Source: a virus. Taken from it: 29,922 nt of DNA. Location: positions 1 to 29,922 of the IMG/VR virus record IMGVR_UViG_3300012351_000196; one strand, 5' to 3'. The position numbers and the translations under genes were made by a program. Positions 13,513 to 26,762 of the stretch are shown piece by piece (positions within the stretch are counted from its first letter, which is position 1; the number at the start of each line of letters is the position of its first letter). The notes below the pieces were generated by a model. It had not been told where the DNA came from. It worked only from the letters and a program-made list of their open reading frames with translations, and did not search any database.

Positions 13513-13887
13513 ATGGGTTACATTGAGCACGCCGCAGTAATCGTCACCGTGTCGGACTACGCCAACGACGACCGTGACCTCGCTCCCGGCCCGAAGGTTG
13601 AGGCGTTCCGCGAGTCGCTGCCGGAGGAGTGGCGGGCGCTCGTCATCGGCCCTGTCCGCGCCGTGGTCAACGGATACGGCACGTACGCCTTCCTGCCGGA
13701 CGGCTCGAAAGAAGGCTGGCGCGACAGCGATCAGGGCGATGAGTACCGCAGCCAGTTCACGGCGATCTTCGCCTTCCGGTACGAGGACGGCTCGTCGCCG
13801 TTCGACGCGGTTGAGGTCCGCTACGGCGGCGACTTCCAGATGGAGTTTGACGGGCCGCGCGCGGCTGATCCAAGAGAGCGGCCGTGA
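13513..13887 (+). CDS. Conserved-type hypothetical protein upstream of integrase
   Basis: 124 residues. MGYIEHAAVIVTVSDY at the start and VNGYGTYAFLPDGSKEGWRDSDQGDEYRSQFTAI later recall a family of small phage and bacterial proteins of unknown function that share the DGSKEGW pattern. The start was set by the leaderless promoter. Its stop overlaps the integrase start (GTGA), so it is co-translated with integrase and sets when integrase is made. It is probably a soluble mixed alpha/beta protein. Confidence 0.6.
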   Translation: MGYIEHAAVIVTVSDYANDDRDLAPGPKVEAFRESLPEEWRALVIGPVRAVVNGYGTYAFLPDGSKEGWRDSDQGDEYRSQFTAIFAFRYEDGSSPFDAVEVRYGGDFQMEFDGPRAADPRERP

Positions 13888-15137
13888 CCGGCAAGCCGGC
13901 CGGGGCGCGGCCCAACCGCGAAGGCAGGCCCTGGAAACGCAAGGACGGCCGCTGGCAAGCCCGCGCCTACCCCCCCGAAGGCGGCATCGACACCAAACCC
14001 AGGTACGTCTACGGCAAGACCCGCCACGAGGCCATCGAGAAACGCGCTCAGCTCGAGGCGAAACTGGCGCAGGGGCTGCCGGAGGACCCGCGCCAGACCG
14101 TCGCCGACGCGTTCACCAGATGGACCGGCACCACCCTGCCCCAGTACGTCCGGGCCGGGCGGCTGACCGCCTCCACGATGGACTCCTACGCCGACAACGC
14201 CCGGCTGCACATCCTCGCCGCGCGCGACGGCATCGGCCATATCGAGCTCGCCAGGCTGAAGGCGGACACGGTGCGGGACTGGCAGGACCGGCTGTCCCGC
14301 AAGCCGTGCGCCCGGCAGCCCCGCGCCGGCCCGCGCAGGACGCTGTCGCCGCGCACCGTGGCGTACTGCCGGGAGATCCTGCACAAGATGATCGCCGACG
14401 CCATCCGCGACGAGACCGCCGGGATCGCCCGCAACATCGTAGACCTGGTCGAGCCGCCCAGGAGCCACGCGGCCGAGCCGGAGATCCTCACCCCGGCCGA
14501 AGTGTCCGCGCTCCTGGTCTCGATGGCGGAAGACCGGTGGTGGTGCTACTGGCTGGCCGCGTTCCTGCTCGGCTTCCGCCGCGGCGAGGGCCTCGGCATG
14601 CGCTGGGACGACCTCGACCTGGAGCGGCGCATCTGGACGCCCGGGCTGCAGGTCCAGCGGCAGCGCGGCGAGCTCGATATGGCCACCGGCAAACGCGGCA
14701 AGGGCAGGCTGGTGGCCCGGGAGATGAAGACCCGCGCGTCACGCGAGCCGGCCGCGCTGCCCGTCTCGGCCGCGGAGGCGCTGGCCGCGTGGCGCACCGG
14801 GCAGCGGCGCCAGCGGCTGGCCGCGCCCGCGTGGGCGGACCTCGGCCTGGTGTTCACCACCGGCCTGGGGACGGCGGTCGAGCCGCGGAACATCGACCGG
14901 CAGTGGGAGAAAGTCCGGGAGCGGGCCGGGATCGGGCGGCCAGCGCGGCTGCATGACCTGCGGCACGCATGCGCGTCGTACGCGCTGGCCGGGGGAGCGG
15001 ACCTGAAGACGGTGCAGCGGATGCTGCGGCACGCCCGGATCTCCACGACGCAGGTGTACGTGCACGCCCTGGAGGACGTGCCCCGCGCGGGCGCCGACGT
15101 CATGGACCGGGTACTCGAAGGACTGAGACAGCGATGA
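13884..15137 (+). CDS. int: Tyrosine recombinase (phage integrase)
   Basis: 417 residues, GTG start overlapping the previous stop. The N-terminal arm-binding part (GRPWKRKDGRWQARAYPPEGG, then KRAQLEAKLAQGL) is followed by a core-binding domain (about 75-180) and the catalytic domain. Catalytic residues are visible: R232 in GFRRGE, H357 and R360 in LHDLRHA, H383 in MLRHARIS, and nucleophile Y392 in TTQVYVH. All are intact, so it is probably active. It would recombine attP with a chromosomal attB. It sits between late and early phage genes. A diverged copy of its last codons lies 300 bases downstream. Confidence 0.92.
   Translation: MTGKPAGARPNREGRPWKRKDGRWQARAYPPEGGIDTKPRYVYGKTRHEAIEKRAQLEAKLAQGLPEDPRQTVADAFTRWTGTTLPQYVRAGRLTASTMDSYADNARLHILAARDGIGHIELARLKADTVRDWQDRLSRKPCARQPRAGPRRTLSPRTVAYCREILHKMIADAIRDETAGIARNIVDLVEPPRSHAAEPEILTPAEVSALLVSMAEDRWWCYWLAAFLLGFRRGEGLGMRWDDLDLERRIWTPGLQVQRQRGELDMATGKRGKGRLVAREMKTRASREPAALPVSAAEALAAWRTGQRRQRLAAPAWADLGLVFTTGLGTAVEPRNIDRQWEKVRERAGIGRPARLHDLRHACASYALAGGADLKTVQRMLRHARISTTQVYVHALEDVPRAGADVMDRVLEGLRQR
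15102..15121 (+). repeat. Direct repeat, copy 1 (inside integrase 3' end)
   Basis: ATGGACCGGGTACTCGAAGG, identical to 15434-15453. The bases on both sides differ from those of copy 2. Confidence 0.9.
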
Positions 15138-16182: not shown

Positions 16183-16472
16183 GGCGCGCCGCCGTAGCCG
16201 AGCAGCCGGCGGGCCAGCGCCGCGCCGCGCTTCTCCGCCCCCGGCGGCGGCACCGCCCGGCGGAACGGGTCCGCGGCGGCCCGCCGCAGGTCCCACGGGG
16301 AGCCGTCCGGGTCCCGCATCAGGCGCACCGTCTCGGCCAGGGTGCGGTCCCACGTCCACCCGGCGCTCTTGGCGGCGAGCAGGGCGGCGGCGAGGACGTC
16401 GTGGTCCCACGCGGGGCGCACGGCCCTGGCGAGGGCGGCGAGCTCGTCAGGGGCCGCCTGGATCTCGGTCAT
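16179..16472 (-). CDS. Small hypothetical early protein
   Basis: 97 residues, ATG overlapping the preceding stop (ATGA), itself overlapping the next start. Helical, with DELAALARAVRPAWDHDVLAAALLAAKSAGWTWDRTLAETVRLMRDPDGSPWDLRRAA. Proteins with this pattern follow the replication genes in several actinophages, without an assigned role. It may bind DNA or the replication proteins, but this is only suggested by position. Confidence 0.55.
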   Translation of the reverse strand: MTEIQAAPDELAALARAVRPAWDHDVLAAALLAAKSAGWTWDRTLAETVRLMRDPDGSPWDLRRAAADPFRRAVPPPGAEKRGAALARRLLGYGGAP

Positions 16473-16807
16473 GACTCGATGGCCAGCGCGTCGGCATCGC
16501 GCACGATGGCGTAGTGGTGGCACGTGCAGCGGCACCAGCTCCACACGCAGTCACGGCAGTTCCGTCCGCGGCACGCGTCGCTGTGCGGCAGGCTGCCCGC
16601 GTTCTTCCGGTCGACCAGCGTGCGGATGTCTGACGCCGCGATGAACGGGCGCGACCGGGCTACCTCGGCTACGGCGGCGCGGCAGTCGGCTAGGTCCAGA
16701 TCGCCGAGCAGGTCATGCCATGCGTCGGGCGTGTAGCTGTCGATCTTCTGCTGCGGGCAGCAGGCCGCGACGTAGCGGATGAGGATAACGGTCTCCGCCG
16801 GCGTCAT
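16469..16807 (-). CDS. Probable replicative helicase loader-like protein
   Basis: 112 residues, ATG start overlapping the initiator gene's stop. The N-terminal ETVILIRYVAACCPQQKIDSYTPDAWHDLLGDLDLADCRAAVAEVARSRPFIAASDIRTLV matches the small domain common in phage replication organiser and loader proteins coded next to an initiator. A Cys-rich tail (CRGRNCRDCVWSWCRCTCHH) could bind zinc. In phages an initiator-loader pair brings host DnaB helicase to the origin, and an origin is embedded in the gene just upstream. The loader call is inference. Confidence 0.6.
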   Translation of the reverse strand: MTPAETVILIRYVAACCPQQKIDSYTPDAWHDLLGDLDLADCRAAVAEVARSRPFIAASDIRTLVDRKNAGSLPHSDACRGRNCRDCVWSWCRCTCHHYAIVRDADALAIES

Positions 16808-17658
16808 TTCCTGCCTTCTTTCGCAATGGCGCGCTTCATCGCCGCGCCGAATAGCTCGTCCGTTTCCGCCTGGCGGTTATTTCCCGGTTTGCGGCTGGCC
16901 TGCATACGGAGCTGATCGTATTTCTCCCGCAATTTAGGCATTGAGAGGATATTGGAGCGCCAGAATTCGTTGTCCTGGCACCAGTCAATTGCGGCGGTAA
17001 TCTGCTGTTCGGTGCGGCCGTCGCGGTCAATCATCAGCCGGGCGGCGTCGCGCCATTTCTTGCCGACTGCGGGGCGCTTGCAGCCGTTGGCTTCGATGCG
17101 GTCGGCGAGGCGGGCGCAGAGGCGCTCGACGTCAGGCCGCGAGGCGATCGCCGGCACGTCTTTAACCTGTACCTCATCTATACCTGTACTGGTTTTAAAC
17201 ACGTCGGAAATCTCCAGGGGTGCAGATTCTGCGGGGTTTCCCTCTGACCTGCCGTTATGTCTCTCCAGGGGTGCAGATTCTGCGGGGTGCAGATTCTGCG
17301 GGGTGACGCCCAGGGGTGCAGATTCTGCACCCCTACCGGGTGGTAGGGGTGCAGATTCTGCACCCCTACCGGGTGGTAGGGGTGCAGAATCTGCACCCCT
17401 GGGAATGATCACCTCGTAGCCATTGCGGCCGTGGTCGCCAGCCTTCAGGTGCATGGCAAGCTCGCGGTGGCGAACGAGTTCCGCGGTCGCATTCTGTACT
17501 GACCGCTCACTCAGTCGCGTTTTCTGTGACAATTCCAGGACGCTCATAGCGGTAATCCCGTCGCGATTCGCTTCGTGCGCTATAGCCAGCAGGACGATGA
17601 GGGAGCCATTGACAGCGCGTGAATGCTTCCACACCCAGTCGACGGCGTTTTGTGCCAC
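16804..17658 (-). CDS. Phage replication initiator with embedded origin
   Basis: 284 residues. Residues 1-86 form a winged-helix domain (WKHSRAVNGSLIVLLAIAHEANRDG, then SVLELSQKTRLSERSVQNATAELVRHREL), the usual initiator DNA-binding domain. Residues 87-150 are a low-complexity linker with repeated ESAPL, coded by the iteron array. Residues 165-284 form a second domain (KKWRDAARLMIDRDGRTEQQITAAIDWCQDNEFW). The layout, with DNA-binding domain, origin inside the gene and loader gene next, parallels lambda O and P without clear sequence identity. The GTG start is set by frame; its ribosome site (GAGGA) is unusually close. Confidence 0.8.
   Translation of the reverse strand: MAQNAVDWVWKHSRAVNGSLIVLLAIAHEANRDGITAMSVLELSQKTRLSERSVQNATAELVRHRELAMHLKAGDHGRNGYEVIIPRGADSAPLPPGRGAESAPLPPGRGAESAPLGVTPQNLHPAESAPLERHNGRSEGNPAESAPLEISDVFKTSTGIDEVQVKDVPAIASRPDVERLCARLADRIEANGCKRPAVGKKWRDAARLMIDRDGRTEQQITAAIDWCQDNEFWRSNILSMPKLREKYDQLRMQASRKPGNNRQAETDELFGAAMKRAIAKEGRK
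17165..17399. other. Probable replication origin (iterons plus A+T-rich side)
   Basis: Six copies of a palindromic iteron (17217-17399) lie inside the initiator gene. Next to them, 17160-17212 is clearly A+T-richer (runs such as TTTAA, ATCTATA, GGTTTTAAAC) and could be the unwinding site. This stretch also holds two direct copies of ACCTGTAC (17165-17172 and 17182-17189). Iterons beside an A+T-rich stretch within an initiator gene is the plan of lambdoid origins. Confidence 0.7.
17217..17399. repeat. Iteron array, six copies
   Basis: Core GGGGTGCAGATTCTGC at 17217, 17268, 17284, 17313, 17346 and 17379. The last three extend with ACCCC into 21-bp palindromes; the copy at 17379 has the central base swapped (AGAATCT), as expected when a palindrome is read from the other strand. 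These three are spaced exactly 33 bp, about three helical turns, with TACCGGGTGGTA between. Copies 2 and 3 are 16 bp apart. Confidence 0.85.
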
Positions 17659-23105: not shown

Positions 23106-23636
23106 TCAGGCGGCCGGGTACCCGGTCTTGCCATCGACAGGATTGAGGCAGGCGTAAGCGCCGTAGATTTCCAGGGCGGCGTAGTTGTAGGCGAGTGCCG
23201 CCTCTTCCTCGCTCGTGAACTGGCCGATGTACCGCTGCGTGCCGTCAATGCGGATCATCGCCCGCCATCTGCGATGCCCGGTAACCCAGTGCACGCCCTT
23301 GTACCTGGATGAACCCTTGATGTTTGAGCGCCGATTGTGCTGATTCTGGGCACTTGTTGCGGGCCGCAGGTTCGACCGCTGGTTGTTCAGGCCGTTGTGG
23401 TCCTCGTGATCGGTCCGCGGCCACCCGGTGATGGCGGTGTGCATGAGCATGGTGGTCGGCTTCCCGTCGGCTCGGTACACCCTGGTGATCGCGTACGGTC
23501 CCTTGTTGCGGCGTCCGGGTGCAGATGGATATTCGAATAGCCGCCATTTGCGGCCTTCCACCAGCGGCCAGTCCTCATCGTCAATGAGGGCTGCGCGTCC
23601 GGTCCCCTTCTTGCCGCTCAAGGCGATGGCCATCAT
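23106..23636 (-). CDS. HNH homing endonuclease with AP2 DNA-binding domain
   Basis: 176 residues. Residues 1-95 form an HNH_3-type nuclease (MLMHTAITGWPRTDHEDHNGLNNQRSNL, with H66, H77 and N89). Residues 110-165 form an AP2-type domain (SRYKGVHWVTGHRRWRAMIRIDG, then RYIGQFTSEEEAALAYNYAAL), which would fix it on its target. HNH-AP2 fusions are known phage homing endonucleases. The nuclease half is clearly related to that of the gene at 11120. The start (ATGATG) overlaps the stop of the Cro-like gene, so it rides as the second gene of the early operon. Confidence 0.85.
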   Translation of the reverse strand: MMAIALSGKKGTGRAALIDDEDWPLVEGRKWRLFEYPSAPGRRNKGPYAITRVYRADGKPTTMLMHTAITGWPRTDHEDHNGLNNQRSNLRPATSAQNQHNRRSNIKGSSRYKGVHWVTGHRRWRAMIRIDGTQRYIGQFTSEEEAALAYNYAALEIYGAYACLNPVDGKTGYPAA

Positions 23637-23908
23637 GCGGCCGGGACCTCCGGCTCCGCATCGGACTGCTCGTCCCCGCCCGCGTCGCTGATGTCGCGCA
23701 GCCTGACGCGGGATCCCGGGGATGACAGGGCGTGGGCGATCTGGTTGAGGAACGCGACGCTGGTGTCGGGTTCCTTGCGCACGATGTTCCACATCGTCTG
23801 CGGGTGCCGGCCGAGCGAGCGCCCGAAACCGGACAGGCTGTAGCCGCGTCTCTCGATGAGTTCGGCGATCTTGGGGCCGTTAGGCTTGGCGGTCGCGACT
23901 GGAGGCAT
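23633..23908 (-). CDS. XRE-type HTH protein, Cro-like regulator
   Basis: 91 residues. Residues 12-65 form an XRE-like HTH (GPKIAELIERRGYSLSGFGRSLGRHPQTMWNIVRKEPDTSVAFLNQIAHAL), followed by a short acidic tail. It is the first gene of the leftward early operon, diverges from the larger HTH gene at 24109, and starts 6 bases after a TACTGT -10 box, so its mRNA is probably leaderless. This matches the role of Cro, though it could also be the immunity repressor. A 17-bp palindrome overlaps its -35 box. Confidence 0.75.
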   Translation of the reverse strand: MPPVATAKPNGPKIAELIERRGYSLSGFGRSLGRHPQTMWNIVRKEPDTSVAFLNQIAHALSSPGSRVRLRDISDAGGDEQSDAEPEVPAA

Positions 23909-25432: not shown

Positions 25433-25729
25433 CTAACCATGCGTATATGCGCATATGCACCCCAAGGGCATTGAGGCTGGCGTTTCCGTGTCCTGCCGCT
25501 TGTTGTACTTCGGCTGCTCCGCCCCGATGGCTGCCCTTTCTGCTGCTTCGGCATCGGCCCGGGAGCTGAACCACTCATCGGCCGTTAGCTGCCGCATCTC
25601 ACTCCACCAAGGCTGCATATTCGCATGCTGTTTCCAGCGGGCGCCGAAGTTCTTGCTAACGCCGACGTAGAGCAAGAGGCCCGCTTCACCCCAGACGCGA
25701 TAGAGCACGAATTCCGTAGCCGCCGGCAT
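25433..25729 (-). CDS. GIY-YIG family protein
   Basis: 98 residues, ATG five bases after the Nudix gene's stop, so probably the second gene of its operon. EFVLYRVWGEAGLLLYVGVSKNFGARWKQHANMQPWW holds the two-strand motif (LYR ... LYVGVSKNF, with R of ARWKQH). SSRADAEAAERAAIGAEQPKYNKRQ matches the later Glu and Asn positions, so the full small GIY-YIG domain seems present. It could cut DNA, perhaps in element maintenance or exclusion. Its partner Nudix protein suggests a shared regulatory or immunity job. A 12-bp palindrome lies in the last codons. Confidence 0.75.
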   Translation of the reverse strand: MPAATEFVLYRVWGEAGLLLYVGVSKNFGARWKQHANMQPWWSEMRQLTADEWFSSRADAEAAERAAIGAEQPKYNKRQDTETPASMPLGCICAYTHG

Positions 25730-25734
25730 GGTCT

Positions 25735-26451
25735 TTACGTCTCCCGCTGGAGTTCGTCGAGGTACTGCCGCACCGGCCCGTACATGTCCGGCATTAGGCC
25801 GCGCGTCTCGTCGATGCTGACCCACCGGACCTCTTCCAGGTCCTCTGGGTCGCCGACCTGCGGTTCGCCCGCCGATACGGCGACATGGCAGTACACCATC
25901 ACGCGGCTGGTCTTCGGGTGGATGCGCCTGCCGATGAACTGGAACGACTCGACCGTCAGGCCGCTCTCGGCCTGGACGCGGCGGCGCAGCGCGCCTCCCG
26001 CCGACTCGCCCTCGTGGATGTCGCCGCCCAGGAACGTCCACGGCGGGATGCCGTCCCGCCGCTTGGCAATCAGGACGTGCCGGTCCGGTGACGTGATGAT
26101 GGCGAGCCCGACGTGGGGCTGCTCTGGCAGGGTGGCTGGCTCGGTCACGGGATATCCCTTCTCTCGTGCGCGTGCGATCCTCTGGCTGACCGCCGCCCGG
26201 GTGACGCCCATGAACGCGGCCAGCTCCTCGTGCGTCAGGCCACGCTCGTCGGCCATGTAGGCGGCGAGCCAGTCGCGGAAATCCGCGGTCTCGGTGCGCA
26301 GCTTCTCGACGAGCTTGGCGAGGGCCTTGGCTGATTCCCAGGCCTGAGCCACATCCGGCCACGCCCTGATGGCGCTGGTGGCCCGGTAGAACGACTCGTC
26401 CATGTGCGCTATCTCGCCGTCCGGGGTGGTGCCCTTCACGTAACCCGTCAT
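25735..26451 (-). CDS. HTH-Nudix protein, Pif-like (conjugal immunity) candidate
   Basis: 238 residues, ATG with TGAGG upstream. Residues 65-105 form an HTH (GLTHEELAAFMGVTRAAVSQRIARAREKG). Residues 112-235 form a Nudix domain with the box at 143-164 (GDIHEGE then RRVQAESG). Two acidic positions of the Nudix box are replaced (R158 and A161), so hydrolysis may be weak or lost. In pSAM2 the Nudix protein Pif gives immunity to incoming copies of the element; a gene of this kind beside a transfer operon fits that role. The HTH suggests it may regulate the divergent transfer promoter. Confidence 0.7.
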   Translation of the reverse strand: MTGYVKGTTPDGEIAHMDESFYRATSAIRAWPDVAQAWESAKALAKLVEKLRTETADFRDWLAAYMADERGLTHEELAAFMGVTRAAVSQRIARAREKGYPVTEPATLPEQPHVGLAIITSPDRHVLIAKRRDGIPPWTFLGGDIHEGESAGGALRRRVQAESGLTVESFQFIGRRIHPKTSRVMVYCHVAVSAGEPQVGDPEDLEEVRWVSIDETRGLMPDMYGPVRQYLDELQRET

Positions 26452-26459
26452 GCTGCCTC

Positions 26460-26488
26460 AGCATAAGGTAGCAGGTCTCTTGCGTCCA
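26460..26488 (-). promoter_or_regulatory. Promoter of the Nudix/GIY-YIG operon
   Basis: TGGACG (26483-26488), 17 bases, TATGCT (26460-26465), 8 bases to the ATG. Its -35 overlaps the -35 of the divergent transfer promoter. Confidence 0.45.
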
Positions 26489-26508
26489 TGTTAGACATGG
26501 GTTACGTT
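26480..26508 (+). promoter_or_regulatory. Promoter of the transfer operon
   Basis: TTGCGT (26480-26485), 17 bases, TACGTT (26503-26508), then 7 bases to an ATG at 26516. Leaderless arrangement. The palindrome CCATGTTAGACATGG (26486-26500) fills its spacer. Confidence 0.55.
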
Positions 26509-26515
26509 GGTCGGC

Positions 26516-26627
26516 ATGACCACTGCGGACGACCAGACGGCCCACCCCGCACGCGAAAGCGGGCCCGGTGCTGCGAACACCGGACCCGCCCTCACCGTCA
26601 GTTCCATTCCCCATGGAAGGCCATGCA
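26516..26627 (+). promoter_or_regulatory. Leader of the transfer operon with strong hairpin
   Basis: Translation from the ATG at 26516 would read MTTADDQTAHPARESGPGAANTGP and on into a frame open to 26827 that overlaps the next gene. Beyond about 40 codons it looks like an out-of-frame reading. Inside lies a 12-bp stem with one mismatch, GCGGGCCCGGTG (26559-26570) and CACCGGACCCGC (26577-26588 region), loop CTGCGAA, without a T-run. It may be a leader peptide with attenuator-like control. Confidence 0.4.
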
Positions 26628-26762
26628 ATGCCCAACGTACCACCGCCCGCCGACATCACCGCCGGCCCGCTGCCGCCGCCGAACATCACCCCGCTGTTCA
26701 CCGAGCTGCTCGAGCTGGCCGCCGCCGAGCGGGGCCTGCCGCCGGAGCCCTGGACCGCGTGA
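26628..26762 (+). CDS. Small protein at the start of the transfer operon
   Basis: 44 residues, ATG with GGAAGG upstream. MPNVPPPADITAGPLPPPNITPLFTELLELAAAERGLPPEPWTA is a Pro-rich start with one helix. Small proteins of this size open transfer operons of actinomycete elements. Function unknown. Confidence 0.5.
   Translation: MPNVPPPADITAGPLPPPNITPLFTELLELAAAERGLPPEPWTA

What the first reader, a model, noticed from the sequence alone, without database searches (positions are those of the whole stretch)
17165..17399. Lambda-style replication origin inside the initiator gene
Six copies of a palindromic iteron (core GGTGCAGATTCTGC) lie in the middle of a winged-helix initiator gene, beside an A+T-richer stretch with paired ACCTGTAC repeats, and the loader-like gene follows. 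Three copies are exactly 33 bp apart. This is the lambdoid O-ori-P plan in an actinophage with no clear sequence likeness to it, and it gives a concrete origin prediction.
Basis: partly seen in the sequence, partly recalled or inferred. Interest (0 to 1): 0.78.

Follow-up and report, generated by a model that had tools for sequence, protein, structure and literature searches.

The report
Phage replication origin inside initiator gene
This soil-phage gene encodes a protein that starts DNA copying and very probably carries, inside its own coding sequence, the repeated DNA site the protein binds, the same plan as phage lambda; comparing hundreds of relatives shows the site changing in step with the protein's DNA-reading domain.

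Summary
Six copies of GGTGCAGATTCTGC (none expected by chance) lie at 17219-17397, all inside one minus-strand gene (16804-17658) and nowhere else in the window. On the gene's 3' side they adjoin the most A+T-rich 50 bp of the whole 29.9 kb. The gene belongs to the lambda O / phi80 gp15 initiator kind: PHROG 391 'replication initiation O-like' matches full length (1e-34), lambda O also matches PHROG 391, and tblastn finds phi80 gene 15. So 'no clear sequence likeness' is wrong, but the origin prediction is well supported. The repeats are read in two frames, encode a predicted-disordered linker, and recur in relatives from Actinomycetota and Proteobacteria. In 214 homologues picked by protein alone, at least five clustered palindromic iterons occur in 53, against 3 of 830 control windows. 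Iteron sequence follows the N-terminal winged helix (partial Mantel r 0.49), not the C-terminal domain. A+T excess sits 0-50 bp 3' of the last iteron. A recognition-helix Glu/Asp choice mostly matches GCA/GAA half-sites, a preliminary code. The downstream gene resembles SPP1 G39P only weakly; no P likeness was found. Replication itself was not shown. New member of a known kind.

The parts
16804..17658 (-). replication initiator gene, 284 aa, O-like
   Evidence: PHROG 391 'replication initiation O-like' E 1e-34 over residues 1-266; tblastn to phi80 gene 15
17401..17658 (-). N-terminal winged-helix domain (residues 1-86), inferred iteron binder
   Evidence: AlphaFold2 model, block pLDDT 71-93 over residues 1-80, helices and strands in winged-helix order; iteron sequence tracks this domain
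17470..17508 (-). predicted recognition helix, residues 51-63; Glu51 and Gln55 are the covarying positions
   Evidence: model; helix/iteron tables
17384..17394 (.). iteron 1 core (gene order), within palindrome 17378-17400
17351..17361 (.). iteron 2 core, within palindrome 17345-17367
17318..17328 (.). iteron 3 core, within palindrome 17312-17334
17289..17299 (.). iteron 4 core; read in another frame (TPQNLHP) than the other five (AESAPL/ADSAPL)
17273..17283 (.). iteron 5 core
17222..17232 (.). iteron 6 core, last before the A+T-rich stretch
17162..17211 (.). A+T-rich stretch, candidate DNA unwinding element, holding two ACCTGTAC (GTACAGGT on the gene strand)
   Evidence: 62% A+T, most A+T-rich 50-mer of the window; family-wide A+T excess at the same place; repeats
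17149..17397 (-). region encoding the predicted-disordered linker, about residues 88-170
   Evidence: pLDDT under 50 almost throughout
16891..17139 (-). C-terminal helical domain (residues 174-256), inferred loader/helicase contact
   Evidence: 43% identical to phi80 gp15 over residues 193-253; matches lambda O's PHROG 277, residues 193-258, E 8.6e-12
16469..16807 (-). downstream 112-aa gene, candidate small helicase loader; starts in a 4-bp ATGA overlap with the initiator stop
   Evidence: only PDB profile hit is 1no1 (labelled replisome organizer; SPP1 G39P by recall), E 0.37; hhalign to a Bacillus phage 'helicase loader' E 8e-4 but probability 24.5; in relatives the position is held by similar small proteins, P-loop proteins or DnaB-like helicases

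Best explanation
This is the replication module of a probably temperate phage of a high-G+C host. The initiator's N-terminal winged helix binds the six palindromic iterons that lie in the part of its own gene encoding a flexible linker. The bound array is inferred to destabilise the adjacent A+T-rich 50 bp on the gene's 3' side. The C-terminal helical domain is then inferred to bring in the small downstream protein and, through it, the host replicative helicase. Shown here: anatomy, conservation at DNA level, covariation of iteron with the N-terminal domain, fixed place of the A+T-rich stretch. Inferred: binding, melting, helicase loading, start of replication.
For: Six exact sites, none expected. 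Full-length O-like profile match; lambda O and phi80 gp15 match the same PHROG 391 through the C-terminal half; direct tblastn hit to phi80 gene 15. Iterons read in two frames here, and in more than one phase in 47 of 68 relatives, so DNA rather than protein is conserved. Homologues selected by protein alone: at least 5 clustered palindromic copies in 53/214 genes against 3/830 control windows; at least 3 exact same-arm palindromes in 58/214 against 4/830. Iteron similarity follows N-domain identity (partial Mantel 0.49, 0 of 999 permutations), not C-domain (-0.15). A+T excess +0.17 and +0.14 in the 0-25 and 25-50 bp bins 3' of the last iteron over 68 loci; the same side in lambda. In the 8.7-Mb Sphaerisporangium genome 4 of 6 exact cores lie in this gene type; in the Solirubrobacteraceae genome 5 of 5. 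Downstream genes in relatives look like small loaders, P-loop loaders or DnaB-type helicases. The array falls in the disordered linker. Known parallel: pSK41 Rep binds boxes central in its own gene, and pPR9 carries another N-domain together with another ori (PMC5703833).
Against: No binding or replication data. Loader identity is weak: E 0.37 in PDB, and 1no1 is not among the rows shown by the fold searches. About two thirds of protein-selected homologues show no clear clustered palindrome by my criteria. Streptomyces phages sharing the C-terminal domain lack this iteron. The window is a virus record that may be a fragment, so another origin cannot be excluded.
Confidence: 0.88

Rival explanations
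1. The repeats are operators: the winged-helix protein is a regulator that binds them to control its own transcription or that of the operon, and replication starts elsewhere.
For: The winged-helix domain resembles MarR/ArsR/LexA-type regulators in sequence and fold searches.
Against: Sites lie mid-gene in the relatives that have them, not at promoters; an A+T-rich tract sits on one fixed side; the C-terminal domain is shared with phi80 gp15 and lambda O; helicase-related genes follow in relatives.
Confidence: 0.05
2. The repeats are a protein-level repeat, a proline-rich disordered linker, with no role as DNA.
For: The linker is predicted disordered and repeats A(E/D)SAPL five times.
Against: Same DNA in two frames here and in more than one phase in 47 of 68 relatives; palindromic as DNA; sequence follows the DNA-binding domain; the same DNA motif across phyla with different C-terminal domains.
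Confidence: 0.01
3. It is a real initiator-binding array but a secondary or maintenance site (incompatibility or copy control), with the main lytic origin elsewhere in the genome.
For: The window may be a fragment; no read-depth or skew peak could be tested.
Against: Only strong repeat array in the window; the same plan is the origin in lambdoid phages (PMC7466680); an integrase-family gene is present, so plasmid-like maintenance is less expected.
Confidence: 0.06

Closest known systems
Phage lambda O - ori - P
   Same: Initiator gene with palindromic iterons in its middle, A+T-rich tract on the gene 3' side, next gene overlapping by 4 bp; C-terminal profile likeness.
   Different: Iteron sequence differs (lambda ATCCCTCAAAACGAGGGA, four copies); N-domains not linked directly by profile; the next protein is 112 aa and not recognisably P.
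Phage phi80 gene 15 and gene 14
   Same: C-terminal domain 43% identical over 61 residues; at least three palindromic in-gene repeats 21 bp apart.
   Different: Iteron and N-terminal domain differ.
Pseudomonas phage MD8 'replication initiation O-like' and relatives (TC7, LESphi3, phi2)
   Same: Half-sites of the same family, GCA...TGCACCC, in the linker; PHROG 391 full length 7e-55.
   Different: Inner bases vary (GCAGCATATGC); followed by an annotated P-like loader.
RepA_N plasmid initiators (pSK41 Rep; pPR9 chimera)
   Same: Winged-helix N-domain binding boxes central in rep, linker encoded by the ori, DnaD-like C-domain; in pPR9 N-domain and ori differ together (PMC5703833); chains 4pql, 4pt7 and 5kbj (RepA by recall) among Foldseek rows, weak E 0.015-0.05.
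   Different: Sequence families differ; plasmid rather than phage.
SPP1 gp38-gp39-gp40 module (recalled; record not held)
   Same: Small loader next to the initiator; the only PDB profile hit of the downstream family is 1no1.
   Different: E 0.37 only; no DnaB-like helicase gene was recognised next to it in the window.

Membership tests
O-like initiator (PHROG 391; lambda O / phi80 gp15 kind) | Profile match over the whole protein | tested here: met
   PHROG 391 E 1e-34, residues 1-266 to profile 1-279/298; lambda O matches it at residues 140-292, E 2.7e-39
O-like initiator (PHROG 391; lambda O / phi80 gp15 kind) | Iterons inside the initiator gene between the two domains | tested here: met
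   six sites, codons 89 to about 147, between winged helix and C-domain
O-like initiator (PHROG 391; lambda O / phi80 gp15 kind) | A+T-rich tract next to the last iteron, gene 3' side | tested here: met
   62% A+T, most A+T-rich 50-mer of the window; lambda 72% at the same place
O-like initiator (PHROG 391; lambda O / phi80 gp15 kind) | N-domain binds iterons and replication starts there | not testable with these tools
   covariation only
lambda P-type helicase loader | Downstream protein matches P | tested here: inconclusive
   112 aa, PHROG 22143 of unknown function, no P profile hit
SPP1 G39P-type loader | Sequence or fold match to 1no1 | tested here: inconclusive
   PDB profile E 0.37; hhalign to an annotated Bacillus phage loader E 8e-4, probability 24.5; 1no1 not in rows shown
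RepA_N (PF06970) | Pfam RepA_N domain | tested here: not met
   Pfam scan gives only HTH_36 at E 0.096, below its cut-off

The most novel reading that the evidence does not exclude
A very large family of phage and prophage initiators across at least Actinomycetota and Proteobacteria carries its own binding site in its linker, and the site diversifies under a partly readable code: with R..Q in the recognition helix, Glu (Glu51 here) goes with GCA half-sites and Asp with GAA, so origins and their incompatibility groups could be predicted from protein sequence. Counts: D with GAA 14 of 14, E with GCA 71 of 75; but only 4 independent pairs lie on supported branches (3.6 same way, 0 opposite, p 0.125), so it is preliminary.
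Probability: 0.5. Interest if true: 0.72.

Novelty: new member of a known kind. Interest (0 to 1): 0.5.

Why it matters
It gives a base-level origin prediction for a phage known only from sequence, and a general way to find origins in temperate phages: look for palindromes in the linker of O-like genes. The covariation of iteron with the winged helix extends to many phages what the pPR9 plasmid chimera suggests for one, and would let one predict which phages and plasmids share replication specificity. I found no paper in the open-access library that maps this, but subscription literature was not searched.

Tried and rejected
Protein-repeat reading: rejected by frame use. A looser fuzzy repeat count had a high background in G+C-rich coding DNA (156 of 830 controls with 3 or more) and was replaced by exact and clustered counts. 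Fold searches for the downstream protein gave only low scores, no 1no1 among rows shown. Genome searches around G001 and G002 gave few new E/D cases. E. coli genomes: the L107 iteron array finds no match. SPP1 record not held. Two genome-search runs failed on syntax. A rule for Gln/Arg at helix position 55 (Arg with GGCA) was seen but has clear exceptions and is not claimed. GC skew of a 30-kb record was judged uninformative.

Full report
Observation. The six GGTGCAGATTCTGC sites are at the stated place, with no other copy in 29,922 bases and none in 100 shuffles. Three are 23-bp palindromes exactly 33 bp apart; the other three keep the 11-bp core GCAGAWTCTGC and one full flank. The gene that holds them runs on the minus strand, 16804-17658, so in gene order the array starts at codon 89 and ends near codon 147, followed by the A+T-rich stretch. 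That stretch, 17162-17211, is the most A+T-rich 50-mer of the window. The ACCTGTAC pair inside it is only mildly unusual.

What the gene is. PHROG 391, 'replication initiation O-like', matches over residues 1-266 with E 1e-34; the C-terminal part also matches PHROG 277, the top PHROG of lambda O, at 8.6e-12. Lambda O and phi80 gp15, scanned as controls, match PHROG 391 through their C-terminal halves. A plain tblastn against named phages reaches phi80 gene 15, 43% identity over 61 residues. The AlphaFold2 model shows a winged helix in residues 1-85, a linker of pLDDT mostly under 50 in residues 88-170, and a helical C-terminal domain. The iterons and the A+T-rich stretch encode just that linker. 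Overall model confidence is modest (mean pLDDT 67, pTM 0.33).

DNA, not protein, is conserved. Five copies encode AESAPL or ADSAPL and one encodes PQNLHP, because it is in another frame. In 68 relatives with at least four clustered iterons, 47 use more than one reading phase.

Relatives. Close homologues L010, L011 and L015-L017 keep palindromes of the GCA...TGC type in the linker. The same motif in the same gene type occurs in genome contigs of Sphaerisporangium, Solirubrobacteraceae, Herbaspirillum, Rhodocyclaceae, Tepidimonas and Orbaceae. Pseudomonas phages carry it too; MD8's gene is annotated O-like and is followed by a P-like loader. In whole genomes the 11-bp core is rare outside the gene: 4 of 6 copies lie in it in Sphaerisporangium, 5 of 5 in the Solirubrobacteraceae genome, 4 of 6 in the Rhodocyclaceae genome, 2 of 7 in Herbaspirillum.

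Unbiased test. Three scans selected homologues by protein domain, not by motif: 214 distinct genes after removing duplicates. At least three copies of one exact 5+5 palindrome occur in 58 of 214 genes against 4 of 830 same-length flank windows. At least five clustered copies of a palindromic 17-mer occur in 53 of 214 against 3 of 830. The iterons differ by subfamily, for example GCAGAWTCTGC, GGTCAWWWTGACC, GAACGNCGTTC and GGTCCGGAATCCGGACC, while their place is constant. Among 68 genes, iteron similarity follows N-domain identity with C-domain held fixed (0.49, 0 of 999 permutations) and not the reverse (-0.15). Pairs alike in N only are alike in iteron (0.61); pairs alike in C only are less so (0.36). 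A+T excess is confined to the 50 bp on the gene 3' side of the last iteron. Lambda shows the same side.

Recognition helix. Helices of the form xx(E/D)RxxQ were tabulated: E with GC, 25 of 26; D with GA, 11 of 11. A further scan (it partly overlaps earlier loci) gave E 59 of 59 GCA-type and D 5 of 5 GAA-type, with L523 as a new case among E-type neighbours. In the pooled set D is 14 of 14 and E 71 of 75, with exceptions L215 (same contig as L400), L271, L408 and L409. On supported tree branches there are only four independent contrasts, none opposed, p 0.125. The code is a lead, not a result.

The next gene. The 112-aa protein at 16469-16807 overlaps the initiator by ATGA, as lambda P, phi80 gene 14 and the MD8 loader overlap theirs by 4 bp. 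In relatives this position holds similar small proteins, P-loop proteins with GPVGVGKT, or proteins that look like DnaB helicases (by eye). The small family's only PDB profile hit is 1no1 at E 0.37. So a G39P-like loader is plausible but not established.

Mechanism and status. Best reading: the winged helix binds the iterons, the A+T-rich stretch opens, and the C-terminal domain brings in the loader and host helicase. This is how lambdoid origins are described (PMC7466680) and close to pSK41 Rep, where the N-domain binds boxes central in rep; in pPR9 the N-domain and origin region are replaced together (PMC5703833). Binding, melting and initiation are inferred here. That the host is an actinobacterium rests on G+C content and the hosts of relatives only. 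The finding is a new member of a known kind; the breadth of the family and the possible code are the parts of wider interest.

Noticed in passing
window 13884-15137 (+): Phage_integrase family protein (Pfam E 5e-19), so the phage is probably temperate.
   Followed up: no
window 23106-23792 (-) and 25433-26701 (-): HNH endonuclease (PHROG 99) and a GIY-YIG domain protein.
   Followed up: no
L009, IMGVR_UViG_3300012359_000039: A 35-kb viral contig encodes an identical initiator (100%), so a near-identical phage was assembled separately.
   Followed up: no
window 16469-16807 (-), residues 79-97: Cys/His-rich tail (CRGRNCRDCVWSWCRCTCH) conserved in the nearest relatives; possible zinc site.
   Followed up: no
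L110, L111, L114, L121: Streptomyces and Gordonia phage initiators sharing the C-terminal domain carry tandem GGAACAGG(G) repeats in the linker instead of this iteron.
   Followed up: partly
L141, L142, L144, L145, L147, L151: Closely alike initiators with GAAC-type iterons in several contigs, each followed by the same small loader-like gene; host not checked.
   Followed up: no
L487, L497, L500, L504, L505, L525, L532, L534, L535: Helices with Arg in place of Gln55 lack GCA-type half-sites, and several show CGGCA instead; other families break this pattern.
   Followed up: partly
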